Below, piece by piece: positions 3,559-26,648 of a DNA stretch of 64,000 nucleotides; the first letter of the stretch is position 1; each line of letters begins with the position of its first letter. The translations under genes and the position numbers were made by a program. The notes under the pieces are model-generated. The model was not told where the DNA came from. It did not search any database and worked only from the letters and a program-made list of their open reading frames with translations. The stretch covers positions 1-64,000 of the forward strand of contig JAKAYA010000004.1 of the NCBI GenBank assembly GCA_021826965.1. Reading direction: 5' to 3'. Source of the stretch: Nitrospirota bacterium. Lineage in GTDB: Bacteria; Nitrospirota; Leptospirillia; Leptospirillales; Leptospirillaceae.

Positions 3559-3875
3559 TCTCCGACCCCCACCTCATCTTTATGGGCAGCCTCTTTCATG
3601 CTTTCTCGATGGATCTCCGTCGATTTCCCCTTGTCTGGCGGGACTTTTTCTTTTAGAACATAATTCCTTAAGACTGCATGAAGAGGACGCAAAAGGCGGG
3701 AACTTTCCGGCGGTTTGACTGCGCAACAATTTCATCAAAACATCTTCGACGTTGGCCTCCAGCAGCGATTTTCGCCAGGTTTCCTTCCTTGACACCGGAT
3801 CAGTGCCGGGGTAGTATTTTTCAAGAGAGATTCCCGTTTTCTCTTGGCAGATAACCGGGAAGAGGAGATGGTCTG
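3559..3875. other. Intergenic region upstream of clpC
   Basis: About 317 bp without a supportable gene. Its right end contains a consensus-like promoter (3789-3817). Minus-strand open frames across it have no recognisable domain and no good ribosome site. Confidence 0.5.
3789..3817 (+). promoter_or_regulatory. Strong sigma70-type promoter of clpC
   Basis: TTGACA at 3789-3794, a 17-bp spacer, and TAGTAT at 3812-3817, about 58 bp before the clpC start. The -35 is exact consensus and the spacing ideal. No CtsR-type repeat was noticed next to it. Confidence 0.7.
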
Positions 3876-6317
3876 ATGATGGACAAATTCACGGAAAAAG
3901 GCCGTAAGGTAATCATTATGGCCCGGGAAGAAGCGGAGAAGCACCAGAACGATTATCTGGGAACCGAGCATATCGTCCTGGCCCTGGTGCGTGAGCAGGA
4001 CGGGATTCCCGTCGCGGTCCTGAAAAGGATGGGGCTGACACCGGACCAGATCCGCATGGAAATTGAACGCAATCTGCTCGGGGGAACGTCCACGCTGACC
4101 TTCGGAGAGCTTCCACTGACTCCACGCGTCAAGAAAGTCATCGAATATTCCGTTGATGAAGCCCGTTTGCTGGGCCACACGCATATTGGCAGCGAGCATC
4201 TTCTTCTCGGTGTGTTACGGGAGGAAGACGGCATCGGAGGAAAGATCCTGCGGGCTCTTGGCGCCAATCTCATGGCGGCAAGACAGTTGACCGCGAGCCT
4301 TCTGAAGAGGGCGAACACGAATGTATCCCGGGAAAAGGAGCGGAAAAGCAATACGCCCGCCCTGGACGACTTTGGGCGCGACCTGACCCAGATGGCATCC
4401 GAAGGGCAGCTCGATCCGGTTATCGGAAGATTTGACGAGATTGAAAGGGTTCTTCAGATTCTCGGGCGACGGACGAAAAACAATCCCGTTCTGATCGGTG
4501 AGTCTGGTGTCGGCAAGACCGCCATCGTGGAAGGACTGGCTCAACGGATCGTGAACGCCGAAGTTCCGGACAACCTCCTGAACAAACGGGTCATCGCGCT
4601 GGATCTCGGCTCCCTGGTGGCCGGCACAAAATACCGGGGACAGTTCGAGGAACGTCTCAAGATCGTCATGAAGGAAGTCGTAACGGCCGGCAACATCATT
4701 ATCTTCATCGACGAGCTGCACACACTGGTGGGTGCCGGAGCCGCAGAGGGCTCCATCGACGCCTCGAACATGCTGAAGCCGGCCCTTTCCCGGGGCGAAA
4801 TCCAGTGTATCGGGGCCACCACTCTGGACGAGTACAGAAAGTATATCGAGAAGGACGGTGCACTGAAACGGCGCTTCCAGTCCATTTTTGTGGACGAGCC
4901 GCCGATCGACGAGGCGGAAAGAATCATTCACGGACTGAAAGACCGGTATGAAGAGCATCATGGCGTCCAGATCACTGATGATGCGATCCACGATGCGGTA
5001 ACCCTGTCCGAGCGCTATGTGACGGATCGGTTCCTGCCGGACAAGGCGATCGATATTATTGACGAAGCCGGATCCCGGGCCAAGCTGAAAAGCTTTTCCC
5101 TTCCCGAGGAAATCAAAGAGCTCGACCAGTCCTTGAAGAAGGTCGTACGCGAAAAGGAAAAGGCCATCCGCGTCCAGAATTTTGAGGAGGCCGTTCGCTT
5201 GCGCGCCCAGGAAGACATGCTGAAAAAGCAGGGCGAGGACGAAAAGCGGAAGTGGAAGGAAGAGCAGGAGAAAAACCGTCCAACCATCGGTCGGGAAGAA
5301 GTTTCTGTCATCGTTTCGAAAATGACGGGCATACCGCTCTACAAGATCGAGGAAGGGGAGAGCGAACGGTTGCTCAAGCTCGAAGGGGAGCTTCACCGGA
5401 GGATCGTGGGCCAGGAAGAGGCCCTTTCCGCGGTGGCCCGCGCCATAAGGCGTTCGAGAGCCGGCATCAAGGGCGAAAAAAGGCCGATCGGATCGTTCAT
5501 TTTCCTCGGGCCGACCGGAGTCGGGAAAACCGAACTTGCCCGCACGCTTGCAGAAACGCTGTTCGGGGACGAAGATGCCCTGATTCGGGTCGACATGTCC
5601 GAATACATGGAACGTTTCAATGTTTCCAGGCTGACGGGCGCACCTCCCGGCTATGTCGGGTATGAGGAGGGCGGACAGCTGACGGAACGGGTTCGCCGGA
5701 GACCGTATTCTGTCGTCCTGTTCGACGAGATCGAGAAGGCCCATCCGGACATGTTCAATGTGCTTCTGCAGATCCTCGATGATGGTTACATCACGGACAG
5801 CCTCGGACGGAAGGTTGATTTCAAGAACACGGTCCTGATCATGACGTCGAACCTGGGTGCCCGTTCGATCGAAAAAGAGGGCTCGCTGGGTTTCCAGAGG
5901 GCAGGTATCGATTCCAAGGAGAAGTTCGTCCGGGATTCGATTCATGAAGAACTGAGGCGCACATTCAATCCGGAATTTCTGAACCGTGTGGATGAGATCG
6001 TCATTTTCCATCCGCTTGCGGAAGTGCATCTGGAAGCGATCGTGGATCTTCGCATTGCCGACCTGAACAAGCGTCTTGCCGAAAAAGGTTTGATGGTGGA
6101 GATCGATCCGGAAGTTCGGAAATGGCTTGTGAAGGAAGGGTACGAGCCGCATTACGGGGCCCGGCCGATGCGCCGCGCAATCCAGCGGCATATCGAAGAC
6201 AGGCTTTCGGAAATGATCATTGGAGGACGCTTCAAGGAGTCCCAGAAGATTCGCGTGGTTCTTCGGGAAGGGCAACCCGTTTTTCTCGAGGAAGACGTCT
6301 TGGCCGGGATCAGCTGA
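3876..6317 (+). CDS. clpC: Clp ATPase ClpC, AAA+ unfoldase
   Basis: An 813-residue class I Clp/Hsp100 ATPase. In order it has two Clp N-repeats (about 1-145), AAA+ module 1 with Walker A GESGVGKT at about 208, a UVR-type helical segment at about 420-445, AAA+ module 2 with Walker A GPTGVGKT at about 545, and a C-terminal D2-small domain. The UVR segment and short middle region place it in ClpC rather than ClpB. It should unfold substrates for ClpP; no clpP lies in the window. The ATG follows a GGAAGAGGAG ribosome site. The mcsA/mcsB/ctsR genes that accompany clpC in Firmicutes are absent here. Confidence 0.93.
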
Positions 6318-6345
6318 TCCGGAAGGTTTTTGGAGTGACCCTTCA

Positions 6346-7383
6346 TTGATTCTCGGTATTGAAACATCGTGTGACGATACATCCGTGGCCCTGGTGGATA
6401 TGACCGGGGCCATTTTATTTCATCGTGTCCATTCACAGGAAAATCTGCATGGTACCTACGGCGGGGTCGTTCCGGAAGTCGCCTCGCGCGCGCATGTCGA
6501 TGTTCTGCCAGCCATGGTCCGATCCGCCTTGCAAGAAACCGCGACTTCCCCTTCCCGGCTCCAGGGAATCGCCGTGACCAGAGGGCCTGGACTCCTGGGC
6601 TCCCTGCTGACGGGAATTGCCTTTGCCAAGGGGATGGCCGCTCCATTACGCCTCCCGCTGATCGGCGTCGATCATGTCCAGGCCCATTTGCGCGCCTGTC
6701 TCGATTCGATGGAGACACTCGAGGGAAAAGCCATCGGGCTCGTCATCTCGGGAGGCCATACACATTTGTTCCGGATTGAAAGATGGCCGGACATGGATCT
6801 GCTTTCGCAGACGGTGGATGATGCGGCCGGAGAAGCGTTCGACAAGGGGGCCAAAATTCTGGGTCTTCCCTATCCCGGAGGACCGTCCATCCAGAGGGAA
6901 GCGGCCAAAAACACGCTTCCCCTGTTAGCGCTGACAAAAAAAAAGATTCGGACGGAAAATCCACTGGACTTCAGTTTCAGCGGGTTGAAAACGGCATTCA
7001 CCTTGACGGTCCGGAAAACGGTTGTCGATGAAAGGATGCGTGCGCTCCTGGCTGCGTCACTTCAGCAGGCAATCATCGAGCACGTCATGGACCGGATCGA
7101 ACGGATTGTGGCGCTGGAATCTCCCGCACATCTTCTGGTTGGAGGAGGGGTCAGCGCCAATGGCCTCTTGCGCGACAGACTCGATGCCTTTGCGAAGGAT
7201 CGGGGGATTGCTCTCCATCTGTCCCCTCTTTCCCTTGCACGAGACAATGCCCTCATGATCGCCCAGCACGGCAGGGAGCGATTCCTGGCTGGGAACTACA
7301 CCCCCTACCCCTACGAATCTTTTTCTCCTTATCCCCGAGAGACAACCGACATCCGGGTGAAAAAAAGCGTTCCCCAATCCTGA
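6346..7383 (+). CDS. tsaD: tRNA N6-threonylcarbamoyladenosine synthase subunit TsaD
   Basis: A 345-residue ASKHA-fold protein that transfers threonylcarbamoyl from TC-AMP to A37 of ANN-decoding tRNAs together with TsaB and TsaE. The N-terminus LILGIETSCDDTS is the family opening, so the TTG at 6346, just after a TTTGGAG ribosome site, is the best start; the longer upstream frame runs inside clpC. Metal-binding histidines are seen in GVDHVQAH, followed by VISGGHT and a C-terminal GGGVSAN/RDNALM segment. It lies 28 bp after clpC and is probably co-transcribed with it. Confidence 0.92.
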   Translation: MILGIETSCDDTSVALVDMTGAILFHRVHSQENLHGTYGGVVPEVASRAHVDVLPAMVRSALQETATSPSRLQGIAVTRGPGLLGSLLTGIAFAKGMAAPLRLPLIGVDHVQAHLRACLDSMETLEGKAIGLVISGGHTHLFRIERWPDMDLLSQTVDDAAGEAFDKGAKILGLPYPGGPSIQREAAKNTLPLLALTKKKIRTENPLDFSFSGLKTAFTLTVRKTVVDERMRALLAASLQQAIIEHVMDRIERIVALESPAHLLVGGGVSANGLLRDRLDAFAKDRGIALHLSPLSLARDNALMIAQHGRERFLAGNYTPYPYESFSPYPRETTDIRVKKSVPQS

Positions 7384-7499
7384 CTTCTCGTAACCGCAAG
7401 GGATTGCAATTGAGAGAATTGACCGATCATGATACGATTCGAAAATTGCCTCTTTTTGTCAGAACGTTCCTGTCATGATTTACTTGTCGAGGAGTCACA

Positions 7500-9287
7500 G
7501 TGCTTGAGATCTGGGTGCGCGACGCGATTTCCGACGTTCTCCGGTCTTATCTGAAAGATATCGGACAGGAGAATGACATCGCCACGTTGTTACCGAAGGG
7601 AATTCGTCTGGAGTTTCCCAAAAAGGAAGGTTTCGGAGAAATCTCCACCCCGCTGGCGATGCATCTTTCTCCCTTGCTGAAAATTTCCCCCCGCAAAATC
7701 GCCGAGACTCTCTCTCCGGCGCTTGCATCCTTTCCCCTTTTCCGGTCGGTCGATATCGCCGGACCGGGATATCTGAATTTTACCTTTTCGGAAGAGTCGA
7801 TCCGGGAAACGCTTCGGAAAATATTGGACCCCCATTCGGACCTGGTGGTTCCTGAGGAAGGAAAGCGACGGATCCTGCTCGAATTCGTGAGCGCGAATCC
7901 GACCGGTCCTCTCCATGTCGGGCACGGTCGGGGAGCCGCCTACGGGGATGCCCTGTCACGCGTTCTGAAAGCCGCCGGACACGATGTGACAACCGAGTAT
8001 TACATCAACGATGCGGGAAACCAGATGGAGATGCTGGGACGTTCGACATGTCTGGCCTGGAGGAAGCTTCAGCGGACAGTTTCCGAGTCGGAGGAAACAG
8101 ACTTCCTGAAAGGCGCGACCCCTTACAAGGGGGATTATATCCGCGAGATCGCACAGGAAATGATCGACACCCCGGGTCTGCTCTCCGTCGAGGAAGCCCG
8201 TGCGGCACTCGACCCGGAAGCGCCGGAATCAAGCTATCTGAGCCGGTTTACGGAATTTTCCCAAGACCGGATCATGGACGGGATCCGGGAAGACCTCCGG
8301 CAATTCGGCGTGCCGTTTGACGTGTTCTTTTCCGAGAAAGTCCTGCACGAGAAAAAGGAAGGGGAGGGATCGGACGCCATCTCCCGATGGATAGGCCGGA
8401 TTCGGGAAGCGTCGGCAGACGCGCGGGAACACAGTGTTCCCGACGTCTATGAATCGGACGGAGCTCTCTGGCTCAGAACGACTGTCCTGGGGGACGACAA
8501 GGACCGGGTTCTGCTTCGAAGCGATGGACGGCTGACCTATTTTGCGGCGGATATCGCCTATCACGCTCTCAAGATGGAGAGAGGGTTCGATGTCCTGATC
8601 GACGTGTGGGGGGCCGACCATCATGGTTATATTCCGAGGATGGACGCGGCTGTGCGAACGCTTTCCCGACTTCTCGACCGTCCTGTCGAGTTTCGCGTGG
8701 CCCTGATCCAGCTTGTCAGTCTCGTCCGGGACGGACGGCCCGTGAGCATGTCGACCCGGGGAGGGGAATTCGTGACCCTTCGGGAAGTCCTTGACGAAGT
8801 GGGTAACGATGCCACGCGCTTTTCGTATCTGACCCGGTCGCACGAATCCTCTCTGGAATTTGATCTGAACAAGGCGAAGGAACGTTCCATGGACAATCCG
8901 GTCTATTATGTCCAATACGCCCACGCCCGGGTCAAAAGCCTTCTCCGACAGGCCGACGCTCGGGGTCTGCCCATTCCGTCCGTCTGGACAGCGGCCGATC
9001 TCGAATCCCTCGGAGAGCCGGCCGAACGGGACCTGGTCCGTTTTCTCGACCGCTTTTCCATGATTGTGAACGATGTTTCCCGGTCTCTGGAAGTACACCC
9101 CCTGACGGAATATCTGACCGATCTCGCGGGACGCTACCACCATTTTTACTTCCATCACCGGATCCTGTCCCAGGAGCCACAGGACCGGAGCCTGACATTC
9201 GCCCGGATCGCTCTTTCCGTCGCTGTCGGCCGTGTACTGGAAAAAGGATTGGGTCTGTTGGGAATTTCCGCTCCGGATGTGATGTGA
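7500..9287 (+). CDS. argS: Arginyl-tRNA synthetase
   Basis: A 595-residue class Ia synthetase that charges tRNA-Arg. The HIGH motif appears as HVGHGRG at about 139-145, and the KMSKS position as SMSTRGG at about 415, the usual ArgRS variant. The N-terminal Add1 tRNA-binding domain and the C-terminal helical anticodon-binding domain (DALR) are both present. It starts at GTG 7500 after CGAGGAG. The tgt gene starts one base after the stop codon, so the two are probably translationally coupled. Confidence 0.95.
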   Translation: MLEIWVRDAISDVLRSYLKDIGQENDIATLLPKGIRLEFPKKEGFGEISTPLAMHLSPLLKISPRKIAETLSPALASFPLFRSVDIAGPGYLNFTFSEESIRETLRKILDPHSDLVVPEEGKRRILLEFVSANPTGPLHVGHGRGAAYGDALSRVLKAAGHDVTTEYYINDAGNQMEMLGRSTCLAWRKLQRTVSESEETDFLKGATPYKGDYIREIAQEMIDTPGLLSVEEARAALDPEAPESSYLSRFTEFSQDRIMDGIREDLRQFGVPFDVFFSEKVLHEKKEGEGSDAISRWIGRIREASADAREHSVPDVYESDGALWLRTTVLGDDKDRVLLRSDGRLTYFAADIAYHALKMERGFDVLIDVWGADHHGYIPRMDAAVRTLSRLLDRPVEFRVALIQLVSLVRDGRPVSMSTRGGEFVTLREVLDEVGNDATRFSYLTRSHESSLEFDLNKAKERSMDNPVYYVQYAHARVKSLLRQADARGLPIPSVWTAADLESLGEPAERDLVRFLDRFSMIVNDVSRSLEVHPLTEYLTDLAGRYHHFYFHHRILSQEPQDRSLTFARIALSVAVGRVLEKGLGLLGISAPDVM

Positions 9288-15136: not shown

Positions 15137-17378
15137 GGCCAACACCCCCGATATTTCCGACCACGGGGACCGTTTGCCGGAATCTGTTCCGACGATCGAT
15201 ACCCTTGTGTCGGAAGTGTCCGTTTACAACAGCGCTCCGGAAGTCACCGACCGGCTGAGGGAAGCTTACCGGCTGGCCGCCGAAGCCCACAAGGGGCAAT
15301 ACCGCAGGTCGGGCGAAGCCTATGTGGACCATCCTCTGAGCGTGGCACTGATCCTGGCCAGCATGAAGGTGGACGCGACCTGCCTCATTACCGCCCTTCT
15401 GCACGATACCCTGGAAGATACGTCGCTTCCGCCGGATCTGATCGAGGAAAAATTCGGAAAGAAGGTCCTGACGCTGATCGACGGCGTGACAAAGATCGGA
15501 AAATTCCAGTATCAGACCTCCAAGGCGGAAAAGCAGGCCGAAAATTTTCGCAAGATGCTCCTTTCCATGTCGGAAGACATCCGGGTGATCCTGGTCAAAC
15601 TTGCGGACCGTCTTCACAACATGCGGACACTGGGATCTCTCGATTCTTCCCGGCAGCGTGCTATCGCCCAGGAGACCCTGGAAATCTACGCTCCTCTTGC
15701 GAACCGACTGGGAATCGGGTGGATGAAATCGGAACTCGAAGACCTGTCCTTTTCCGTCCTGGAACCCAAGACGTTCCAGGATCTGCGGGCGCGGGTGTCA
15801 GCCCGTCGGAAGGAGAGGAAGAACTATATCAACCTGATTGTCCGCACCGCGGAAGAGGCCCTTCGCTCAAACGGGATTTACGGGCGGGTCCTGGGCCGGT
15901 ACAAGCATATCTACAGCATCTACCGGAAAATGACGTTGCAGGAAATCCCGTTCGACGAGATCTACGACTTGATGGGGATCCGGATCATCACGGACACAAA
16001 ATTGAACTGCTACGGGATCCTGGGCCTTCTCCACAGCATCTGGAAGCCGATCACCGGACGCATCAAGGACTTTATCGCCGTTCCCAAATCCAACATGTAT
16101 CAGTCGCTTCATACGACGGTCATCGGTCCGGAAGGCGTTCCGGTGGAGTTCCAGATCCGTACGGAAGAGATGCATCGTGTGGCGGAGGAAGGGATTGCCG
16201 CCCACTGGAACTACAAGGAAAAGTCCGACACCCTGCCGGCGGAAGGGGAACGGAAGGTCGTTGCCTGGCTCCGTCAGCTGGTCGAATGGCAAAAGGAGCT
16301 TCCGGACAACCGGGAGTTCATGGATTCGGTCAAGGTCAACCTTTTTCCTGATGAAGTTTATATTTTCACCCCGAAGGGCCAGGTCAAGGAACTGATCCAT
16401 GGCGCAACGGCGATCGATTTTGCCTACAGCATCCACACCGATCTGGGGAATCATATTGTTGGCTCCCGGATCAACGGGCGGTGGGCGCCGATCAAGACGG
16501 TCCTTTCGTCCGGGGATATCGTGGAGATCATGACCTCTCCCACCCAGACTCCGAGCAAGGATTGGCTCCGGTATGTGGCGACTCCTCGCGCAAGGGCCCG
16601 GATCCGTCACTGGCTCAAGGAAGAGGAAGACCGCCAGAGCGCCGAAATCGGCAGGAAAGCCCTCGAAGCCGAATTCCGGAAGGTCCACAAGTCTCTGAGC
16701 GAATTTCTGAAGAGTCCTCATTTGGAAACCGTTCTGTCGTTTTCGGATCTGCCTGTTCCGACGATCGAAAATGTCTTTTCCCGAATCGGCTTCGGGAAGG
16801 TGACACCCCAGGGGGTTCTCCGCAAGCTTTTTCCGCTTCCGTTGGATACTCCGCCGCCCGCTTCTGCCGAACATGAGGTATCGGCGTCCGACTATCCGAT
16901 CGTTGTGCGCGGGGGTGGAAGGGACCTGTTATTGGGGATCGCCCGTTGCTGCAGCCCGGTTCCCGGAGAAGAAATCGTGGGATTCGTGACGCGGGGCAGG
17001 GGGATCATGATCCATTCCCGGGACTGTCCCAACCTCGACCATTTGTCCGTTCAGAAAGAACGGTTCATTGCCGCGACCTGGGATTCGGAGTCCGGATCCA
17101 CCTTCGAGGTCGATCTCCGGGTCCTGATGGAAGACAAGCCCGGAATGCTGGCAGGGGTTTCGGCGGTCATTTCCGCGAAGGGGACCAACATTACGCACGC
17201 CGAAGTCCGGCAGGACCGCCGCAAGATGGCCGTTCTCAATTTTTCCCTGATGGTGCGGGACATGACTCATCTCCAGACTATCATGGACGAAATCCAGCAA
17301 TTCAAGGGGGTGATCCGGGTCCAGCGGATCAAGAAAGCGACGACGTTTTCCAAAAATGAATCCGGAAAGGAAGATTAG
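15093..17378 (+). CDS. rel: Bifunctional (p)ppGpp synthetase/hydrolase (Rel/SpoT type)
   Basis: A 761-residue RSH protein. In order it has an HD hydrolase domain with intact HDTLED at about 104, the synthetase domain (about 235-370, including RIKDFIAVPKSNMYQSLHTT), a TGS domain (about 405-465) and a C-terminal ACT domain (about 680-755). The intact HD motif points to both synthesis and breakdown of (p)ppGpp. The chosen start is TTG 15093, inside the recJ end, because an AAGGGAGA ribosome site precedes it at correct spacing. fdhE begins one base after its stop. Confidence 0.93.
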   Translation: MSGTSPSVATDPQDRANTPDISDHGDRLPESVPTIDTLVSEVSVYNSAPEVTDRLREAYRLAAEAHKGQYRRSGEAYVDHPLSVALILASMKVDATCLITALLHDTLEDTSLPPDLIEEKFGKKVLTLIDGVTKIGKFQYQTSKAEKQAENFRKMLLSMSEDIRVILVKLADRLHNMRTLGSLDSSRQRAIAQETLEIYAPLANRLGIGWMKSELEDLSFSVLEPKTFQDLRARVSARRKERKNYINLIVRTAEEALRSNGIYGRVLGRYKHIYSIYRKMTLQEIPFDEIYDLMGIRIITDTKLNCYGILGLLHSIWKPITGRIKDFIAVPKSNMYQSLHTTVIGPEGVPVEFQIRTEEMHRVAEEGIAAHWNYKEKSDTLPAEGERKVVAWLRQLVEWQKELPDNREFMDSVKVNLFPDEVYIFTPKGQVKELIHGATAIDFAYSIHTDLGNHIVGSRINGRWAPIKTVLSSGDIVEIMTSPTQTPSKDWLRYVATPRARARIRHWLKEEEDRQSAEIGRKALEAEFRKVHKSLSEFLKSPHLETVLSFSDLPVPTIENVFSRIGFGKVTPQGVLRKLFPLPLDTPPPASAEHEVSASDYPIVVRGGGRDLLLGIARCCSPVPGEEIVGFVTRGRGIMIHSRDCPNLDHLSVQKERFIAATWDSESGSTFEVDLRVLMEDKPGMLAGVSAVISAKGTNITHAEVRQDRRKMAVLNFSLMVRDMTHLQTIMDEIQQFKGVIRVQRIKKATTFSKNESGKED

Positions 17379-17379
17379 G

Positions 17380-18288
17380 ATGGCGCTTACCAGAGAACAG
17401 CAACTGGCCGCCCACATCCGGGCCAGGCCCCATTTGCGGGAAATCTTCCAGTTCCAGCAAAAAATCGAGGAGATCTGGCATGCATCGATTCCGGATGATT
17501 TTTTGCCGGCCGTGGATCTTCGGGACCAGAACGTTCGAGATCGACATCGCTCGGGGAGAGCTCTTCTCGACCGGGAATCTTTCGCCCGTCTTGAGTTCGC
17601 GAGTTCCGGAACGCAGTTTCGCAAGATCCTGACCGTGATGCGTCAGGGGGGAGGAGAAAAGGAAGTATTGGCGCAGCGTATCGCTTCGTACCTTCGGGTG
17701 TCAGGGAGAAGCGAACCCTGGCTGATCCGGACCGTCCTCTCCCGGGATGATGCCTACCTGGACCAGATTTCCCGCGAAATGGATGTTCCCGGCCCCCTTC
17801 TGATGCATCTGATCAAACTGACTTTGAGGGTCTCCTTCGAACGGCTGCATGAAACCCTCCGGACGCTTCTGGGCGGGAGCCTGGACTGGGACTTCCCTCT
17901 CTGTCCCGTCTGCGGGGGTTCCCCTTCGCTGGGTCAGGCTCTTTCGGAAGGCCGGAGACGCTACTTCTGCTTTTTCTGTGCTTTCTCCTGGATGGCCGAG
18001 CCTTCGGACGGCTGTCCCGCCTGTGGCCTTGACGATCCGGACAGGGTCAACCTCATGTACAAACATCCGGAGGAAAATCAGGGATTCCTGGCGTGTGAAG
18101 GGTGCCAGTCCTACATCAAGATCGTGGACCAGCGGTCGGAGAAAGAGGTTCTGAATGCGGATGTTCAGGAAATCCTGGGCATTCATCTCGACATGGCGGC
18201 CCAGGAGATGGGATTTCGTCCGATGGGACAACCGCCGGAACGTTTTGAAACGATCATCCGGCCGGGATACGATACCCCCCGACCCTGA
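17380..18288 (+). CDS. fdhE: FdhE-like formate dehydrogenase accessory protein
   Basis: A 302-residue protein with the FdhE arrangement of CxxC pairs: CPVC near 175, CFFC near 204, CPAC near 213 and CEGC near 239. These form two rubredoxin-like iron sites. The motif NADVQEILGIHLDMAAQEMGF is typical of the C-terminus. The family is needed for assembly of membrane-bound, selenium- or cysteine-type formate dehydrogenases. I chose ATG 17380, just after the rel stop and following GGAAAGGA; an ATG at 17356 is also in frame. No formate dehydrogenase subunit is in the window. Confidence 0.82.
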   Translation: MALTREQQLAAHIRARPHLREIFQFQQKIEEIWHASIPDDFLPAVDLRDQNVRDRHRSGRALLDRESFARLEFASSGTQFRKILTVMRQGGGEKEVLAQRIASYLRVSGRSEPWLIRTVLSRDDAYLDQISREMDVPGPLLMHLIKLTLRVSFERLHETLRTLLGGSLDWDFPLCPVCGGSPSLGQALSEGRRRYFCFFCAFSWMAEPSDGCPACGLDDPDRVNLMYKHPEENQGFLACEGCQSYIKIVDQRSEKEVLNADVQEILGIHLDMAAQEMGFRPMGQPPERFETIIRPGYDTPRP

Positions 18289-18585: not shown

Positions 18586-18627
18586 AGGAGGCGTCTCTTG
18601 ACACGAACGCCTCCTTCTCTTATTTTT
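18586..18627 (+). terminator. Intrinsic terminator ending the clpC-fdhE region
   Basis: A perfect 9-bp stem (AGGAGGCGT at 18586-18594 with ACGCCTCCT at 18607-18615), a 12-nt loop, and a T-rich run to about 18627. It separates the housekeeping run from the tetR operon. Confidence 0.85.
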
Positions 18628-18636
18628 AAAACATGC

Positions 18637-18658
18637 ATTAATTGATTAACCAATTAAT
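18637..18658 (+). promoter_or_regulatory. Palindromic TetR-family operator candidate
   Basis: ATTAATTG at 18637-18644 and CAATTAAT at 18651-18658 form perfect 8-bp arms around a 6-bp centre. Taken as a 22-bp palindrome, only one pair mismatches. It ends directly before the ribosome site of the tetR gene. TetR regulators commonly bind such sites and autoregulate, so this is a probable operator for the downstream efflux operon. Confidence 0.7.
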
Positions 18659-18672
18659 AGGTGAGCAGAGCC

Positions 18673-19374
18673 ATGACGTCTGACGGTTGCGACAAAAGCC
18701 AGCAAAGAAAGCGAGAGATTTTGTCGGCGGCCCTTTCCTGTTTTGCGGAAGAGGGATACCATGCGACGACAAATCGCAAGATCGCCTGTCGGGCGGGGAT
18801 CACGGAAGGGCTGATATACCATTATTTCCCGAACAAGAAGGCGCTTCTTTCCGAGATCATCGAGGCAAATTTCCACCGGGACTGCTCTCCGCTCTACCGG
18901 TTTCTCTCCGGATGGGAAGTCCGGAAGTCGGAAAAAAAAGTACCGTTGGATCCGGATCAATTCCCGATGTTTCTGCACGACCTGGGAAAGACGGTTCTGG
19001 ACTCGATGGATCAGAACAAGGACGTTCACCGGGTCATCGTAAGCGAGTTTCGTTTGCTGGAAGAAGATGGCGAGCCACTCTATCCGAAATTGCTCATGGA
19101 GCTTTCCATTCAGAGAATCGTGGCGCTTTTCGAGTGGTGGAACCGGTCTCTTGCCCTGGACTCTTTTTCGCCGTCCAGAGACGTTTGGTTCTTTACCGGG
19201 CCCCTCTTCGCCTTTTTTCATTTTCAGGAAATCCTCTCGGGAAAGAAGGTTTTCCCCATTGACCGGACAGACTTTCTGGAAGGTCTTATCGCGCATTTTC
19301 TCAAGGGAATCGGATGGCAGAAGGCCGAACCGTGTTCCCGGACAACCGTCTCTTCAAAAAAGGACAAAAGATGA
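18673..19374 (+). CDS. TetR-family transcriptional regulator
   Basis: A 233-residue regulator with an N-terminal TetR helix-turn-helix (about residues 10-60; TTNRKIACRAGITEGLIYHY) and a variable, helical ligand domain. ATG 18673 is preferred over GTG 18661 because AGGTGAG at 18659-18665 sits 7 nt before it, whereas the GTG overlaps that site. Its stop overlaps the cytochrome gene start (ATGA). It is followed by efflux genes in the same direction, so it probably represses its own operon through the upstream palindrome. The ligand is unknown. Confidence 0.88.
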   Translation: MTSDGCDKSQQRKREILSAALSCFAEEGYHATTNRKIACRAGITEGLIYHYFPNKKALLSEIIEANFHRDCSPLYRFLSGWEVRKSEKKVPLDPDQFPMFLHDLGKTVLDSMDQNKDVHRVIVSEFRLLEEDGEPLYPKLLMELSIQRIVALFEWWNRSLALDSFSPSRDVWFFTGPLFAFFHFQEILSGKKVFPIDRTDFLEGLIAHFLKGIGWQKAEPCSRTTVSSKKDKR

Positions 19375-19976
19375 AATCAGGTCGACTGGTCTATTCTCTG
19401 GCACTTGTTCTGGTCGTTACGGCGGGAGCTCTGGGCGGGATTCATGCCCATGCCAATGAAAACACCTACTTCCATCGGTATGTGGGGGATGAGACCTGCG
19501 AGGTCTGCCATTCGTCGGCGCGCATCGGAAATCAGTTCCAGATCTGGAAGTCCTCTCCGCACGCCCGCGCATACCGGGATCTCGGGTCACCGGAAGCACT
19601 CTCGATCGCTCGCAAGATGGGGATCTCCAATCCCAAAAACGATATGCGCTGCCTGTCCTGTCACACGACGGCCGCCGGGACGCACTTGCCCCAGGTCATC
19701 TCCACCTTCCGGAAGCGTGACGGAGTCCAGTGCGAATCCTGTCACGGTCCCGGGGAAGATTATGCGCACTTCAGCACGATGATCGATCCGGTCAAGAGCC
19801 GGAAGGCGGGGCTGGCCGCTCATCCGGAGAAATCCTGCGTGACCTGTCACAACCCCTCTTCTCCGACCTTCCGGGGGTTCGATGCCCGGAAGTCCTTGGC
19901 GGAAATCGCCCATCCCGTTCCGGAGAAGTACAAGAAGGCCATGCGGGACGCATATGATGGAGACGGCGCAAAATGA
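19371..19976 (+). CDS. Tetraheme c-type cytochrome (cytochrome c554-like)
   Basis: A 201-residue exported protein. A signal peptide (about 1-28, ending AHA) is followed by four CxxCH heme sites: CEVCH at 43, CLSCH at 94, CESCH at 121 and CVTCH at 156. The CESCHGPG context is typical of the cytochrome c554-type multiheme family found in periplasmic electron transfer. Its start overlaps tetR and its stop overlaps the adaptor gene (both ATGA), so it is firmly inside the efflux operon. This partnership is unusual. An electron donor or acceptor cannot be named from sequence. Confidence 0.85.
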   Translation: MKSGRLVYSLALVLVVTAGALGGIHAHANENTYFHRYVGDETCEVCHSSARIGNQFQIWKSSPHARAYRDLGSPEALSIARKMGISNPKNDMRCLSCHTTAAGTHLPQVISTFRKRDGVQCESCHGPGEDYAHFSTMIDPVKSRKAGLAAHPEKSCVTCHNPSSPTFRGFDARKSLAEIAHPVPEKYKKAMRDAYDGDGAK

Positions 19977-20935
19977 CGGAAGAGGATGGGAGAAACGGAA
20001 GAAACGGGAGAAACGGCTTCCGAAGTCCGAAATTCTGGGTTCCCGTCGCCGGTCTCGTTGCGACACTGCTGGTCTATGCGGCCTATATCCGGTATAACGC
20101 ATTTTATGTCTCGACGGAAGACTCCGCCGTCGATGGCAACATCATTCTGGTTTCCGCCAACGCCGATGGACGGGTTATGGAGTTTCCCCTGAATCAGGGC
20201 GATCCGGTCGTCCGGGGGGAAGAGGTCGCCCGGATCGATACGACCGGATTCCAGCGTCTGAGGCAGATCAACGAAAACAATCAAAGCGCTTTCAAGGATC
20301 TTCAGACGGCGATTTCGACCGAAGAATCCCTCAAGGTGAACCTGCTCAACGCCGAATCCCAGTACCGGCGGGGGATCCGCTTGCGCAAGGGCGGGTTCAT
20401 CACGGCACAGGATCTCGAAAATCTCAGGACTGCGGTCGAAGATGACCGCTCAAGGCTCCTGCAGGCGAAAAAGGTTGTCCTTTCCGAAAGGATGCGACTC
20501 GAGATCACCGAGTCCCATCCCCTGAACTATACGGTTCATTCCCCCATCGACGGGCAGGTGGCGGAGAGGATCGCCCAGATCGGCGAAGTCGTTTCTCCGG
20601 GCCAGCCGCTCCTGTCTGTCGTGAACCCCAAGGACATCTGGGTGACGGCCAAGGTCAAGGAGACACGGATGACCCGTGTTCGGGTCGGGCAAGAGGTCGA
20701 CATCGATGTGGACACTTATCCCGACAGGAAGTTCCATGGTCATGTAGAGAGGATTCTTCCGGTTTCCGCGGCGGCAGTGTCGCTTCTTCCCGCAGAAAAC
20801 GCTTCCGGCACGTTCGTGAAAGTCATCCAGAGGATTCCGGTCCGGATTCATGTGGACGATGCGGGTTCTTATATCCTCCGTCCCGGGATGTCGACCGAGG
20901 TCCGCATCCATATCCGGAAAGGCTCGCCGTGGTAA
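19973..20935 (+). CDS. EmrA/HlyD-type membrane fusion (periplasmic adaptor) protein, copy 1
   Basis: A 320-residue adaptor with a cytoplasmic N-terminus rich in RNG repeats, one membrane span (about 22-42), a lipoyl-like half motif (VDGNIILVSANADGRV), a coiled-coil hairpin (about 90-165) and a second lipoyl/beta-barrel region (VHSPIDGQVAERIAQIGE). The family bridges an inner-membrane EmrB-type pump to TolC. The gene overlaps the cytochrome gene upstream and the pump gene downstream. Confidence 0.9.
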   Translation: MTEEDGRNGRNGRNGFRSPKFWVPVAGLVATLLVYAAYIRYNAFYVSTEDSAVDGNIILVSANADGRVMEFPLNQGDPVVRGEEVARIDTTGFQRLRQINENNQSAFKDLQTAISTEESLKVNLLNAESQYRRGIRLRKGGFITAQDLENLRTAVEDDRSRLLQAKKVVLSERMRLEITESHPLNYTVHSPIDGQVAERIAQIGEVVSPGQPLLSVVNPKDIWVTAKVKETRMTRVRVGQEVDIDVDTYPDRKFHGHVERILPVSAAAVSLLPAENASGTFVKVIQRIPVRIHVDDAGSYILRPGMSTEVRIHIRKGSPW

Positions 20936-22518
20936 TGCCGGATTCGGGGAGCCTCGTCGGAGATTCCCCTCACTACAGGTGGTGGGCTTTGACGGTTGTG
21001 ATGGTCGGGCTGTTTCTGCCAGTTCTGGACACCACGATTGTGAACGTGGGACTTCCGAACATGGTTGGAAGTCTCGACACCAACACGGACGAAGTCCGGT
21101 GGGTGATTACCGCATATGCCATGGCTTTTGCGATCGTCACGCTGGCGAGCGCCTGGACGAGAACCCTTTTCGGGGTCAAAAGGCTCTATCTGCTGTCGAC
21201 ATTCGTGTTCACGTTTTCCTCTTTTCTGTGCGGGCTTTCCCCGAATCTGAACGCGATGATTTTTTTCCGGGTTTTGCAGGCGGTGGGTGGCGGCCTGATG
21301 ATGCCGCTCGGGTTCACGATCATCACGGAGGCGTTCCGTCCGGAAGAACGCGCCAAGGCTTTTGGCTTCTTTGGTATCGTCATCGTGCTTGCACCGACGA
21401 TCGGGCCCATCCTCGGCGGATATCTGATCGACAATTTCAACTGGCGGGATATCTTTTTCGTCAATATTCCGGTGGGAATCCTGTCGTTTGTCCTGACATT
21501 TTTCTTTCTCCGGAAAGACACTCCCCAGACAGTCGTCCCGTTCGATTTTCCCGGATTCGTCTCGTTGGGAACGTCCCTGGCCTTTCTCCTGATCGGGTTG
21601 ACGGAAGGCGAACGATGGGGCTGGACGGCCCATTTCGTCTATGAGTGCTGGCTGGTTACGGCGATCTCGTTCTGGATTTACCTGTTCACGGCGTTCCGGG
21701 TCAAACATCCGATTATCGACCTGACCGTTTTTCGGGACTGGGACTTTTCGGCGATCATGATCCTGAACATTCTTCGGGCAATCAGCCTGTTCGGCCGCAT
21801 GTTTCTCCTTCCGCTCTTTGTCCAGACCTTCAACCGGTTTCCGGCAACGGATGCCGGCATGCTCCAGCTTCCGGCCTCGCTGATTGCCGGAATTTTCATG
21901 CCCGTGATGGGCCATGTTTCCGGCATCGTTTCCGACCGGGGCAAGAGGATCATCCTGTTCTCGGGTTTCATCCTTCTCGCGTCGGCCCAGTTCATGTTCG
22001 CCTTTCTGACGCAGATCACGAGTTTCTATCAGATTCTGATCCCGCAGCTCGTTTTCGGATTGTCTCTGGGAATGGTGAACGCCCTTTTGTCGAGCCTCCC
22101 GCAGAATCTCGTGGAACGAAAGCACATCGGTCTCGCTTCCACCCTCCAGAGCAACATGCTCCAGATCGGAGGGGCCATCGGTGTGGCAGTCCTGGGAAAT
22201 ATCCTGGACCATCGGTCGGCCTCCATCTATTCGGAATATCAGTCGCATGTCACCCGGAGCGCCTATTCCGTTCAGGCGGCGACACAGGAGCTTTCCTCCA
22301 GATTGTCCGAAGGGGGACACCTGTTCCAGTTTCCAGGGCGTGTGCAGGCAGAATTGTCCGGTCTTGTGCACACACAGGCCTCGATATCCGGCTACAACAT
22401 GACGTTTATTTGGGCGGCCCTTTTTGCCGCTCTGGGAATTCCGGTCATTCTGCTGATGCGGCGATTTTCGCACAATGGCCAGGACGGTGTTCAAAGGGAA
22501 GGGGTTGTTGCGGAATGA
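20929..22518 (+). CDS. EmrB/QacA-type (DHA2) major facilitator drug exporter, copy 1
   Basis: A 529-residue MFS protein with about 14 membrane segments. Seen are VLDTTIVNVGLPNMVGSL (the DHA2 opening motif) and GPILGGYLIDNFNWRDIFFVN (the antiporter motif C region). It exports hydrophobic compounds by proton antiport with its adaptor and TolC. GTG 20929 lies 7 nt after GAAAGG; ATG 20935, overlapping the adaptor stop (TAATG), is an equally possible start. It ends with an ATGA overlap into the tolC-like gene. Confidence 0.9.
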   Translation: MVMPDSGSLVGDSPHYRWWALTVVMVGLFLPVLDTTIVNVGLPNMVGSLDTNTDEVRWVITAYAMAFAIVTLASAWTRTLFGVKRLYLLSTFVFTFSSFLCGLSPNLNAMIFFRVLQAVGGGLMMPLGFTIITEAFRPEERAKAFGFFGIVIVLAPTIGPILGGYLIDNFNWRDIFFVNIPVGILSFVLTFFFLRKDTPQTVVPFDFPGFVSLGTSLAFLLIGLTEGERWGWTAHFVYECWLVTAISFWIYLFTAFRVKHPIIDLTVFRDWDFSAIMILNILRAISLFGRMFLLPLFVQTFNRFPATDAGMLQLPASLIAGIFMPVMGHVSGIVSDRGKRIILFSGFILLASAQFMFAFLTQITSFYQILIPQLVFGLSLGMVNALLSSLPQNLVERKHIGLASTLQSNMLQIGGAIGVAVLGNILDHRSASIYSEYQSHVTRSAYSVQAATQELSSRLSEGGHLFQFPGRVQAELSGLVHTQASISGYNMTFIWAALFAALGIPVILLMRRFSHNGQDGVQREGVVAE

Positions 22519-23915
22519 AGATGCAAAAGAAGATTCGAAGCATGATCGGACTGATTCTTGTGGTGTCAATTTTCGGGGGGATTTCTGAGCCGGCTCCTGC
22601 GAGAGCGGCACAGGAAGGGGATGTGGACGGAAACAGTAAAATGGCCGACGTTCTGTCCGGTGAGCCGATTTCCTTGCCGGAAGCGCTGGATGAAGCGTTG
22701 TCCCGGCGACCGGCCCTGCACGATTTTCGCCATCAGCTGGAAGCCAGGAAGGACGTCGTGGGCGAAGCCCGGTCTAACTACATGCCTCAGCTTTCTGCGA
22801 GTTATCAGAATATTTATGGGAACAGTTTTCTGGGAGTCTTCCTGTTTCCGGGGTTCCAGTATTTCGACCTGAGTATCCTGACCGTGACACTGAACCAGAA
22901 CATCTACGATTTTGGCCGGACTTCCTCTCAGGTCAAGCAGGCCAGAATGGCGCGGAAGGGGGCTCAGTCCGCCTTGAACAAGGAAGTCCTGGATCTCCGG
23001 CAGGATGTGACTGTTTCCTATCTGACACTTCTGATGGCCCAGCATGCGTTGAAATCCGCGTTTTCCGGCGTCCGGGATGCCCGTCATCATCTGGCGGAGG
23101 CCGAAGCCCGGCTTTCCGCCGGGGTGGGGATCCGCCTCGATGTCACCCAGGCCCGGGTGAACCTCGAGACGGCCCTGCTTCAGAGGATCCGGGCGATGAA
23201 CGATTTCCGGACGGCGCAAATAGAGCTTTCACGCACGATCGGAATCAAGAAGAATCCCCATTATGTCGCCCGGGAAATCTCCCTGGATCGATTCAAGAGG
23301 TCGATCCGTCTGGAATCGGATATCCGCCTGGCTTATCGCCAACGTCCGGATCTCAAGCAGATCGAAAGCCAGGTCCGGGAGGGAGAAGCTCGCCTTGCGA
23401 ACGCCAAATCCCAGAACTGGCCGACCATCAACGGAGTCGGTCAGTATTTCATGTCGAACATCCCGGCTCAGGCTCTGGGTATCTCCTATATGCCGAACTA
23501 TCCGTTTTCGACCTTCAATATCGGCGGTGTGGTGAATGTACCGATCTTCGAAGGGGGGCTGATTTCGCATCAGGTGCATGAGGCCCGGTCGCGTCTGGCC
23601 TCGACCAATGATCAATTCTCCGAAGCCAAGCTTCGGGTTTCGGCCGAAGTTCGCGAAGCCGCTCTCAACGTCCGTGCCGCTCTCCAGCGGTGGAGTGAAG
23701 CCCGGACAGCTTTTGAAAGCGCACGGGAAAACGACCGTCTGGTGGAAAAATCGTTCAAAGTCGGAACAGCCCGTTCGGTAGATGTCGTCGACGCCGAAAC
23801 GGCTCTTCGGCAGGCCCGGGAAGATCTTGTTCAGGCCCGTTACGACTGGGCCATCCAGATGATTCGCTATCGTCACAGTCTGGGAGACATGTCGATGAAT
23901 CTTCCTTCCCGCTGA
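22515..23915 (+). CDS. TolC-family outer-membrane efflux channel
   Basis: A 466-residue protein with a signal peptide (about 1-35, ending ARA), followed by two internally similar OEP repeats that form the TolC barrel and alpha-barrel. Visible family traits are ...SLPEALDEALSRRPAL, RQDVTVSYLTLLMAQ and a C-terminal VDVVDAETALRQAREDLVQARYDWA. ATG 22515 overlaps the pump stop. Much longer upstream reading in this frame lies inside the pump gene and is not coding. It is the single outer-membrane exit for the two pumps in this operon. Confidence 0.9.
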   Translation: MKMQKKIRSMIGLILVVSIFGGISEPAPARAAQEGDVDGNSKMADVLSGEPISLPEALDEALSRRPALHDFRHQLEARKDVVGEARSNYMPQLSASYQNIYGNSFLGVFLFPGFQYFDLSILTVTLNQNIYDFGRTSSQVKQARMARKGAQSALNKEVLDLRQDVTVSYLTLLMAQHALKSAFSGVRDARHHLAEAEARLSAGVGIRLDVTQARVNLETALLQRIRAMNDFRTAQIELSRTIGIKKNPHYVAREISLDRFKRSIRLESDIRLAYRQRPDLKQIESQVREGEARLANAKSQNWPTINGVGQYFMSNIPAQALGISYMPNYPFSTFNIGGVVNVPIFEGGLISHQVHEARSRLASTNDQFSEAKLRVSAEVREAALNVRAALQRWSEARTAFESARENDRLVEKSFKVGTARSVDVVDAETALRQAREDLVQARYDWAIQMIRYRHSLGDMSMNLPSR

Positions 23916-24023
23916 ACCGGGTTTTTCCTCCCGGGATCGCTCCCGCCGTTGCGGAATGGGCTTTTCGGGAGGGCAGTCATCCGACTTTTTTTCCGCCATT
24001 CATCCATACAACAGGAGACACGT

Positions 24024-25019
24024 GTGAAGAAATTGTTGACGATCGGAGCCGTCCTTCTCGGGAGCGGGGTATTGCTTGCTGCAGGATACCTGTGGTGGGA
24101 CCACAACCGCTATTACGTTTCGACCGAGGACGCCACCGTTGCCGGCCGCCCCCACCCTGTCACGGTTCGCATTCCGGGAACGGTTGTCGACGTTCTGGTC
24201 CACGATAATGAACCGGTCAGGAAAGGCCAGGTTCTTTTTCGGCTGGATCCGGGGGATTACCAGACCCGACTGATGTCCGACGAGGGCAGCCTGGATGTCG
24301 CCAAAAAAAGGGTGGATGTCGACCAGTCGCGCATTCAGGAAGTCGAAGCTGAAGAAGAGCGGATCCAGTCGGATTTGAAGCGGATTTCACGGCTCCGAAA
24401 GGGCGGATATTCTTCGACCCAAAGCCTGATCCATCTGAGGCTGGCACTGAAAGGGGCGAAAGCCCGCATCCAAAGCCTCGAAAACCAGATCCGTGCCGAC
24501 CAGGGAATGATCGAACGGAGGACGGGCCAGGTGGCCGAAGACCACCTCAACCTGTCCTATACTACGGTCGTTTCCCCGGTCGACGGAAAAATGACCGTGA
24601 AGTCGGTGGTCCGGGGACTGTATGTCTCTCCGGGAACCCCGTTGGGGTACGTGGTCCCTTATCACGTCTGGGTGATTGCCAATCTGAAAGAGAGCCGGCT
24701 GACGTACGTGCGCCCGGGGGATCCGGTCGACATTCGGGTGGATGCCTATCCGGGAAGGCATTTTCACGGACATGTCGCAAGCATCCAGCAGACCACCGGA
24801 GCCGTGATGTCCCTCCTCCCGCCGGAAAATGCCACGGGGAACTTTACGAAGGTGGTTCAGCGGGTGCCGGTGCGGATCGCTCTGGACCCCGGAACGGACC
24901 CGCACAACCTCCTGAGGCTGGGGCTCTCGGTGGTTCCCGTCATTCGCGTCAACCCGAACGATCCGCCTTTTCGTCCGTCCGGCAATTCCGGATCTGATGG
25001 AAGGGCAAAAAGAGATTAG
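24024..25019 (+). CDS. EmrA/HlyD-type membrane fusion protein, copy 2
   Basis: A 331-residue second adaptor. Its membrane span (about 5-23) is followed by YYVSTEDATVAGRPHPV, a coiled-coil hairpin (about 90-175) and VVSPVDGKMTVKSVVRG. The chosen start is GTG 24024, right after an AGGAGA ribosome site; ATG 23949 would add an arginine-rich leader with no ribosome site. It resembles copy 1 in layout (YVSTED near the start) but is clearly diverged, so this is an old duplication or independent recruitment. Confidence 0.88.
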   Translation: MKKLLTIGAVLLGSGVLLAAGYLWWDHNRYYVSTEDATVAGRPHPVTVRIPGTVVDVLVHDNEPVRKGQVLFRLDPGDYQTRLMSDEGSLDVAKKRVDVDQSRIQEVEAEEERIQSDLKRISRLRKGGYSSTQSLIHLRLALKGAKARIQSLENQIRADQGMIERRTGQVAEDHLNLSYTTVVSPVDGKMTVKSVVRGLYVSPGTPLGYVVPYHVWVIANLKESRLTYVRPGDPVDIRVDAYPGRHFHGHVASIQQTTGAVMSLLPPENATGNFTKVVQRVPVRIALDPGTDPHNLLRLGLSVVPVIRVNPNDPPFRPSGNSGSDGRAKRD

Positions 25020-25025
25020 CCGACG

Positions 25026-26648
25026 ATGGAGATGACCGTATCACACGAGGAAGACAGCCATCCGGGATATCCCATGGCTCTTCGTGTTCCCCTCACCATG
25101 ACCGCTATCGGGGCTACCCTGATCGAAACGATTGATTCGACGGTCGTCAACGTCGGGCTTCCAAAAATGATGGGTGGTCTCGACGCCTCGGTGGACGAGA
25201 TCGCCTGGGTGATCACCGCTTACTCTATCGGAAATGTCCTGATGATTCCGATGACCCGGTTTGTTAGCGACCGGATCGGGAGAAAAAAATACTTTACGGG
25301 CTCAATTCTCCTTTTTACGCTTTTTTCCTATCTGTGCGCCGGTTCCACATCCCTTTTCGCAGTCATCCTGTTCCGGCTGTTGCAGGGGGTGACAGGCGCG
25401 GCCTTTTTTGCCACCAGCCAGACGCTCCTGATCGAAGCTTTTCCTCGCGAGCAGATCGGTCTCGCCAATGCGCTCTTTGCTGTCGGCATCAGCATCGGCC
25501 CTGCACTGGGTCCGGTGATCGGCGGATATCTCGTTTACCATGAGACCTGGCCCTGGATGTTCTACATCAATGTCCCCATCGGAGTCATCCTGACACTCAT
25601 GTCGTGGAAATTTGTTCCGGATTCGCCCTATGCCATCGAGAAGGAGGAGACGGATCTCTGGGGAATTGCTCTTCTTTTGACAGGAATTCCGGCTCTTCAG
25701 ACCTTTCTGGAAGACGGTCAGCGATTCGACTGGTTTTCTTCGCCCCTGATCCGGACGTGCTTTTTTATCTGGATCATCAGCCTGCCCTTGTTCATCGTTC
25801 GTCAGTTTCTTGCACGGCATCCGCTCATCGATTTGCGGGTGTTGAAAAACCGGTCCCTCTTTGCCGGCTCTCTGGGGCTTTTTCTTTTGGGAACCGTTTA
25901 TTTCGGAACGCTTTTCACCGTTCCCCTCATGGGCCAGAGTCTTTTGGGGTGGAATCCGCTTCTGACCGGGATCGTGCTTTTGCCGGGAATCCTCGGGTTT
26001 GCCGTGACTTCGATGGTCGTCGGCGGTTCGATGGGGAAGATTCCGCTTTTTCCCGTCCTGCTTCTGGGGGTGACGATGGTGGAGATTTCTCTCTACCAGC
26101 TTGCGTTCATCTCGCCAGGGGTCGGGCCGGAAGCGTTCTTCTGGCCCCTGATGTTCCGGGGAATAGGGCTCGCATGTCTGTTTCCCCCGATCATGACTCT
26201 GGCGATGGCGACGCTTCCCCGAAAGATGGTGGCATCCGGAGCGGCCATCGTCAGCATGATGGGGCAACTGGGCGGCGCCATCGGTATCGCCGGACTTGCG
26301 ACCTTGATGCAGCGCTACGAACAGATTCATCGAAACTACCTGTCTTCAAATCTCGTTCCCTCCGGGTTGACCCTGAACGACCAGATCGATCGATTGACTG
26401 CGCTGTTGTCCACTCGGGGGCTGCCCTGGGAGCAGGCGAGGAAAGCGGCCATTTCGATGATCGACCAGAGGGTGGAAGGGCAATCCCTCATGCTGACCTA
26501 TGGAAACCTGTATGTTTTTGTCGGAAGTGTGGCTCTGGTACTTGTTGTTCTGGTGTTTTTATTTGAAAAGACGGCCTTGTCCCATCCCGCATCCTCTGTC
26601 AAAAAAGGTCTGACTCCAGCTCCCGCGCCTGTGGAGGAACCCCTCTGA
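25026..26648 (+). CDS. EmrB/QacA-type (DHA2) major facilitator drug exporter, copy 2
   Basis: A 540-residue 14-span MFS exporter with ETIDSTVVNVGLPKMMGGL near the N-terminus, RLLQGVTGAAFFATSQTLL, and GPALGPVIGGYLVYHETWPW in the motif C region. It is the partner of adaptor copy 2, six bp downstream of it. ATG 25035 is an alternative start. The gene ends the operon; no T-tracted hairpin was found right after it. Confidence 0.9.
   Translation: MEMTVSHEEDSHPGYPMALRVPLTMTAIGATLIETIDSTVVNVGLPKMMGGLDASVDEIAWVITAYSIGNVLMIPMTRFVSDRIGRKKYFTGSILLFTLFSYLCAGSTSLFAVILFRLLQGVTGAAFFATSQTLLIEAFPREQIGLANALFAVGISIGPALGPVIGGYLVYHETWPWMFYINVPIGVILTLMSWKFVPDSPYAIEKEETDLWGIALLLTGIPALQTFLEDGQRFDWFSSPLIRTCFFIWIISLPLFIVRQFLARHPLIDLRVLKNRSLFAGSLGLFLLGTVYFGTLFTVPLMGQSLLGWNPLLTGIVLLPGILGFAVTSMVVGGSMGKIPLFPVLLLGVTMVEISLYQLAFISPGVGPEAFFWPLMFRGIGLACLFPPIMTLAMATLPRKMVASGAAIVSMMGQLGGAIGIAGLATLMQRYEQIHRNYLSSNLVPSGLTLNDQIDRLTALLSTRGLPWEQARKAAISMIDQRVEGQSLMLTYGNLYVFVGSVALVLVVLVFLFEKTALSHPASSVKKGLTPAPAPVEEPL

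What the first reader, a model, noticed from the sequence alone, without database searches (positions are those of the whole stretch)
18673..26648. A tetraheme cytochrome built into a doubled EmrAB-TolC export operon
One regulator, one four-heme cytochrome, two adaptor/pump pairs and one TolC channel lie head to tail, mostly with 4-bp overlaps. The cytochrome is coupled at both ends (tetR stop and adaptor start), so it is not a bystander. EmrAB-TolC operons are well known; a periplasmic multiheme cytochrome inside one is not something I recognise. It could reduce or detect the exported compound (quinone-like, metal or redox-active), or feed electrons to detoxification coupled to export. The second pair may give a different substrate range for the same channel.
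Basis: partly seen in the sequence, partly recalled or inferred. Interest (0 to 1): 0.66.

Follow-up and report, generated by a model that had tools for sequence, protein, structure and literature searches.

The report
Tetraheme cytochrome in efflux-pump operon
Iron-oxidising acid-loving bacteria related to Leptospirillum all keep a four-heme electron-carrying protein locked inside the operon for a toxin-expelling pump, a pairing I found described for no other pump, which suggests that they combine redox chemistry with export.

Summary
A TetR regulator, a periplasmic four-heme cytochrome, EmrA, EmrB and TolC lie head to tail at 18673-23915, joined by 4-7 bp overlaps; a second EmrA/EmrB pair follows after a 108-bp gap. 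The cytochrome belongs to the c554 family by sequence profile and predicted fold, but is not the nitrifier's c554. The order tetR-cyt-emrA-emrB(-tolC) is kept in 20 of 21 Leptospirillaceae genomes from five genera (the exception is 64% complete and lacks both genes), with its overlaps and a promoter-operator palindrome. In the L. ferrooxidans group a second cytochrome copy ends a different, divergent EmrB-EmrA-TolC operon. Outside the family, relatives of cytochrome and pump occur apart. So the cytochrome is a dedicated partner of these pumps. The second pump pair is optional: absent at this locus in two genera, free-standing in one genome seen. Published transcriptomes probably show this operon rising on fatty-acid and AHL signals; the gene identity is inferred. 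Best guess: the cytochrome exchanges electrons with the exported toxicant or its products in the periplasm. Electron direction and substrate are untested. A new variant of a known kind of system.

The parts
18598..18626 (+). sigma-70-like promoter TTGACA-17-TATTTT of the operon
   Evidence: Consensus scan, 10 of 12 positions; similar TTGACN-17-TATACT boxes seen by eye before the operator in L037, L046, L049.
18637..18658 (.). 22-bp palindrome ATTAATTGATTAACCAATTAAT, probable TetR operator
   Evidence: unique in the genome at up to 3 mismatches; related palindrome before tetR in every type I locus.
18673..19374 (+). tetR, TetR-family regulator
   Evidence: PF00440 E = 3e-18.
19371..19976 (+). 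c554-type tetraheme c cytochrome with signal sequence
   Evidence: PF13435 E = 4e-17; family profile to 1bvb E = 2e-16; fold match to 1bvb E = 2e-4.
19497..19511 (+). heme motif 1, CEVCH
19650..19664 (+). heme motif 2, CLSCH (no conserved extra ligand identified)
19731..19745 (+). heme motif 3, CESCH
19836..19850 (+). heme motif 4, CVTCH
19973..20935 (+). emrA1, periplasmic adaptor
   Evidence: HlyD Pfam families; EmrA subfamily best match; PDB EmrA E = 6e-33.
20929..22518 (+). emrB1, DHA2-family MFS permease
   Evidence: TIGR00711 370 bits, cut-off 230; PDB EmrB E = 4e-51.
22515..23915 (+). tolC, outer-membrane channel
   Evidence: PF02321 E = 9e-55.
24024..25019 (+). emrA2, second adaptor (optional appended pair)
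   Evidence: absent at this locus in g2 and g5.
25026..26648 (+). emrB2, second DHA2 permease (optional appended pair)
   Evidence: TIGR00711 338 bits; 27% identical to emrB1.

Best explanation
This is a self-regulated, toxicant-inducible EmrAB-TolC export operon of Leptospirillaceae that has captured a c554-type tetraheme cytochrome as a dedicated periplasmic partner. Proposed steps: (1) the TetR protein represses its own operon at the palindrome just downstream of the promoter; (2) hydrophobic weak-acid or signal-type compounds (DSF-family fatty acids, AHLs) relieve repression; (3) EmrB1 with EmrA1 and TolC exports them using the proton motive force; (4) the cytochrome, secreted and loaded with four hemes, works in the periplasm beside the pump and exchanges electrons between the exported compound (or a product of it) and the periplasmic cytochrome pool of the iron-oxidising chain, so that the compound is altered and less able to re-enter. 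Shown: gene order, coupling, conservation of the operator, family of the cytochrome. Step 2 rests on published transcripts whose gene identity I inferred. Step 3 follows from the known family. Step 4, including the direction of electron flow, is inference.
For: Order kept in 20 of 21 genomes, five genera; cyt/emrA 4-bp overlap in nearly all loci; the five-gene unit stays intact in g5 where the neighbours differ; second copy at the end of a divergent EmrB-EmrA-TolC operon in the L. ferrooxidans group; conserved operator; c554 fold; signal sequence. Induction: LFTS_00939-00941 on DSF/BDSF and AHL (PMC8357829), TetR LFTS_RS12460 and HlyD LFTS_RS12470 on DSF (PMC12122527); in the window's genome only this operon has tetR, one gene, EmrA-type adaptor.
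Against: No biochemical data. DSF and AHL are not obviously redox-active. The published tags could not be tied to sequence here. The periplasm of an iron oxidiser is highly oxidising, so reduction of a substrate would need a low-potential donor. No contact between the cytochrome and the pump is shown. All Leptospirillaceae loci may descend from one joining event.
Confidence: 0.42

Rival explanations
1. Respiratory relief. The exported compounds are uncouplers at low pH and the pump needs the proton motive force. The cytochrome is an extra electron carrier, induced with the pump, that keeps electrons flowing along the periplasmic chain while the uncoupler is expelled. It does not touch the substrate.
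For: c554 is an electron carrier; DSF compounds are proposed uncouplers at low pH; EmrAB expels uncouplers such as CCCP (PMC8277102); a 'cytochrome c544' is listed among carriers from iron oxidation in L. ferriphilum (PMC5772234; whether that is this protein is unknown).
Against: Does not explain why the gene is kept with pumps in two different operons instead of among respiratory genes.
Confidence: 0.25
2. Co-regulated bystander. An ancestral insertion put the cytochrome behind tetR, and overlapping reading frames have kept it there without a shared function.
For: All first-type loci may descend from one event; overlaps can lock genes together.
Against: A second copy joined another pump operon; the cytochrome is as well conserved as EmrA and better than TetR and TolC; the unit kept intact after its neighbours changed.
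Confidence: 0.12
3. Small-ligand detoxification. An open heme, as in Nitrosomonas c554, binds or reduces nitric oxide or a peroxide produced under the same stress; the pump and the cytochrome are two arms of one stress response.
For: Fold matches c554, with HAO and hydrazine dehydrogenase next at non-significant E; no conserved extra ligand for the second heme motif, as for heme 2 of c554 (own knowledge).
Against: No nitrogen-oxide genes in the operon; published induction is by acyl compounds.
Confidence: 0.1
4. Redox sensor or structural partner. The cytochrome reports the redox state of the periplasm to the adaptor, or gates pump assembly.
For: Coupling to emrA in first-type loci.
Against: In the second-type loci it follows tolC instead. 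No signalling domain.
Confidence: 0.06

Closest known systems
EmrAB-TolC tripartite MFS efflux pump of E. coli (structures 8zal, 8zar)
   Same: Adaptor, 14-helix-type DHA2 permease and TolC-type channel; EmrB1 matches PDB EmrB at E = 4e-51 and EmrA1 matches PDB EmrA at E = 6e-33.
   Different: No cytochrome in the E. coli system (own knowledge). Here a tetraheme cytochrome is translationally coupled to the adaptor gene, the regulator is TetR-type, and the channel gene is in the operon.
FarAB-MtrE fatty-acid pump of Neisseria, and FusE-type fusaric acid export
   Same: MFS or HlyD-type exporters of hydrophobic organic acids (PMC8277102); the DSF-induced L. ferriphilum HlyD protein was called a FusE homologue (PMC12122527).
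   Different: No cytochrome reported in these systems in what I read; membership was not tested by sequence here.
Cytochrome c554 (CycA) of Nitrosomonas europaea (1bvb)
   Same: Four collinear CxxCH motifs, aligned His27-type ligand, best profile and fold match.
   Different: Far below the c554 equivalog cut-off (34.7 against 400 bits), 23% identical in the fold alignment, linked to efflux and not to hydroxylamine oxidation.
Free-standing c554-like tetraheme cytochromes of other Nitrospirota, Myxococcota, Planctomycetota, Ignavibacteriota
   Same: Same small tetraheme family, 26-42% identity.
   Different: No efflux genes beside them in 18 + 7 loci; in most other Nitrospirota the His64 position is Met or another residue.

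Membership tests
EmrAB-TolC type MFS tripartite pump | DHA2-family EmrB permease | tested here: met
   TIGR00711: EmrB1 369.6 and EmrB2 337.8 bits, cut-off 230.2.
EmrAB-TolC type MFS tripartite pump | EmrA-type periplasmic adaptor | tested here: inconclusive
   Best match is the EmrA/EmrK subfamily TIGR00998, 178 bits, below its cut-off of 391; Pfam HlyD families above cut-off; PDB EmrA E = 6e-33.
EmrAB-TolC type MFS tripartite pump | TolC-type outer-membrane channel | tested here: met
   PF02321 186 bits, cut-off 22; TIGR01844 202 bits, just below its cut-off of 225.
EmrAB-TolC type MFS tripartite pump | Proton-driven export of hydrophobic toxicants through an assembled complex | not testable with these tools
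   Needs assay.
Cytochrome c554 / c-prime family (PF13435) | Family profile above the curated cut-off | tested here: met
   63.3 bits, cut-off 20.8.
Cytochrome c554 / c-prime family (PF13435) | Four CxxCH motifs and the c554 fold | tested here: met
   Four invariant motifs; only significant PDB fold match is 1bvb.
Nitrifier cytochrome c554 (CycA equivalog NF043010) | Score above the equivalog cut-off | tested here: not met
   34.7 bits against 400.
TetR-family local repressor | TetR DNA-binding domain and a palindrome at its own promoter | tested here: met
   PF00440; palindrome conserved and unique in the genome.
TetR-family local repressor | Binding to the palindrome, released by a ligand | not testable with these tools
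   Needs gel shift or reporter assay.

The most novel reading that the evidence does not exclude
A four-part 'redox efflux' system in which a periplasmic multiheme cytochrome is a working component of an MFS tripartite pump and chemically alters, or senses, the substrate during export.
Probability: 0.3. Interest if true: 0.82.

Novelty: new variant of a known kind. Interest (0 to 1): 0.6.

Why it matters
Tripartite pumps are treated as purely transport machines of adaptor, permease and channel. A multiheme cytochrome that evolution keeps with the pump across a whole bacterial family, and attaches a second time to another pump, points to coupling between export and periplasmic redox chemistry. 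It also gives a concrete, testable operon for how Leptospirillum, a main organism of acid mine drainage and biomining, resists uncoupling fatty-acid signals that inhibit bioleaching. If this cytochrome is among those listed as iron-oxidation carriers, that assignment should be revisited.

Tried and rejected
Cytochrome as an iron-oxidation carrier only: rejected as the main reading because in this family it sits with pumps. Doubled pump as the essential unit: rejected, since the second pair is missing at the locus or free-standing in relatives. Linkage elsewhere: none found in 18 loci of other Nitrospirota nor in 7 loci of other phyla. The first structure model, with signal peptide (pLDDT 75.5), matched nothing; the mature protein with a deeper alignment worked. 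No paper on a cytochrome in an EmrAB operon was found; a large review of tripartite pumps has no 'cytochrome' in the first 300,000 characters held. A plasmid search gave one weak partial match. The second cytochrome of G016 (L012, L035) sits two genes away from an EmrB but not next to EmrA or TolC, so I do not count it as a second-type operon. A different tetR-x-adaptor triad (tetR, tolC, RND adaptor, RND pump on C44) was checked as an alternative identity for the induced L. ferriphilum genes and fits the published descriptions less well.
Full report
What is there. The window lies in contig C57 of a 2.2-Mb draft genome of the Leptospirillum family: close relatives named Leptospirillum sp. share the locus, and a relative of 2,559,538 bp (G004) matches, from memory, the size of L. 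ferrooxidans C2-3. The ORF list starts the cytochrome too early at 19314; the ATG at 19371 gives a classical signal sequence and the ATGA overlap with tetR.

Control region. A sigma-70-like promoter (TTGACA-17-TATTTT, 18598-18626) is followed directly by a 22-bp near-perfect palindrome (18637-18658). It occurs once in the whole genome at up to three mismatches. A related palindrome (ATTGATTGGTCAATCAAT-like) stands before tetR in every relative with this operon that reaches far enough upstream, and is absent from the second-type pump operons. This is the expected anatomy of a self-repressing TetR switch for this operon alone. Binding is not shown.

Conservation. The cytochrome was found in 20 of 21 genomes of the order, five genera; the one without it is 64% complete and also lacks the EmrB1 orthologue. 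In all 20 the order is tetR-cyt-emrA-emrB, with tolC next in the loci where the contig is long enough to see it (L068). The cyt/emrA overlap is 4 bp in nearly every locus, and tetR/cyt overlaps or lies within 37 bp. In g1, g2, g3 and g4 the unit stands in front of hrcA and dnaK; in g5 the neighbours are different, yet the five genes stay together. A 4-heme ORF lies within 1.5 kb of 19 of 19 EmrB1 loci that reach the upstream side and of none of the 10 nearest outside EmrB relatives, which are only about 33% identical. Genomes of one family are not independent events; the original insertion may have happened once.

Second association. In the L. ferrooxidans group (G004, G005, G006) a second copy of the cytochrome ends another operon, emrB-emrA-tolC-cyt, whose pump parts are only 27-40% identical to those of the window and which has neither this tetR nor the operator. 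The window's own genome has an emrA-tolC pair next to the same malate-dehydrogenase-like gene but no cytochrome there (L065). A tree places these copies beside the first-type copies of the same genus with modest support (86/91), consistent with duplication. So the cytochrome has been joined to an EmrBA-TolC operon at least twice. This is the strongest argument against a bystander.

The second EmrAB pair. It is present behind tolC in g1, g3 and g4, absent at this locus in g2 and g5 (L034 and the g5 loci), and a relative stands alone as an emrA-emrB pair in a g5 genome (L072). It is an optional addition.

What the cytochrome is. Pfam Cytochrome_C554, E = 4e-17. A family profile finds N. europaea cytochrome c554 (1bvb) at E = 2e-16. 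An AlphaFold2 model of the mature protein (pLDDT 84) has 1bvb as its only significant PDB match (E = 2e-4), with HAO and a hydrazine dehydrogenase next at non-significant E. In the 25-sequence alignment all four heme motifs and H64 (which aligns with c554 His27, a heme ligand by own knowledge) are invariant; H181 and M137 nearly so. The second motif has no conserved extra ligand, as in c554, whose heme 2 is open (own knowledge); here this is inferred only. The residue near c554 His102 is His133 in the first-type copies and Arg in the second-type copies of the L. ferrooxidans group. It is not the nitrifier protein: 34.7 bits against an equivalog cut-off of 400.

Outside the family. Relatives at 26-42% identity in other Nitrospirota and other phyla are free-standing or lie among other cytochromes and respiratory genes; no Emr gene was adjacent in 18 + 7 loci. 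The family is general; its joining to efflux is a Leptospirillaceae feature as far as searched. Other phyla were sampled lightly.

Published expression. In L. ferriphilum, DSF/BDSF and AHL treatment raised transcripts of a regulator and the two following genes, LFTS_00939-00941, called a multidrug efflux system (PMC8357829). 00939 is placed in COG K and 00941 in COG V, while 00940 is in none of the efflux categories listed. A second study names a TetR (LFTS_RS12460) and, two tags on, a FusE-like HlyD protein (LFTS_RS12470) (PMC12122527). In the window's genome only this operon has tetR, one gene, then an EmrA-type adaptor; the other such triad has TolC in the middle and an RND-type adaptor. 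So the induced operon is probably this one (my estimate about 0.75); the supplementary tables that would settle it were not readable here.

Mechanism. EmrAB-type pumps expel uncouplers and some MFS tripartite pumps expel fatty acids (PMC8277102), and DSF compounds are proposed to act as uncouplers at low pH. The pump's role in expelling such acids is therefore plausible. The cytochrome's role is open. I favour electron exchange with the exported compound or its products in the periplasm (0.42), over support of electron flow during uncoupling (0.25), bystander (0.12), small-ligand detoxification (0.1) and sensing (0.06). The periplasm of an iron oxidiser is highly oxidising, so electron acceptance from the compound is at least as plausible as its reduction.

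Verdict. Observation confirmed; interpretation partly supported. The parts are known; the combination is conserved, specific, twice associated and, as far as the searchable literature goes, undescribed.

Noticed in passing
L013, L031, L032 (G004, G006, G005): Second-type cytochromes carry Arg where the first-type copies have His133, next to the position of the c554 heme-1 ligand His102; a possible ligand difference between copies.
   Followed up: partly
L106-L121: In most other Nitrospirota the invariant His64 (SPHARAY) is replaced by Met or another residue (TTMAGSF), which suggests a different axial ligand.
   Followed up: no
L035 (G016:C154), 3723-7165: An extra cytochrome copy in one g5 genome sits behind an EmrB, a hypothetical protein and a HEAT-like protein, and before a PstS-like gene; no EmrA or TolC there.
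   Followed up: partly
window 17356-18288: FdhE-like zinc-ribbon protein between the relA/spoT-like gene and the operon has no Pfam match at E 0.001.
   Followed up: no
window 18586-18615: A terminator-like stem (AGGAGGCGT/ACGCCTCCT) followed by a T-rich stretch overlaps the operon promoter, so upstream termination and initiation share the same bases.
   Followed up: no
L034, about 4611-8190: A 3.7-kb stretch lies between the small membrane protein gene and tetR in g2, where g1 and g3 have a short gap; content not examined.
   Followed up: no
L038, L046 (g5), upstream of tetR: In g5 the divergent neighbour looks, by eye, like a DUF692/MNIO-type protein next to a small lipoprotein.
   Followed up: no
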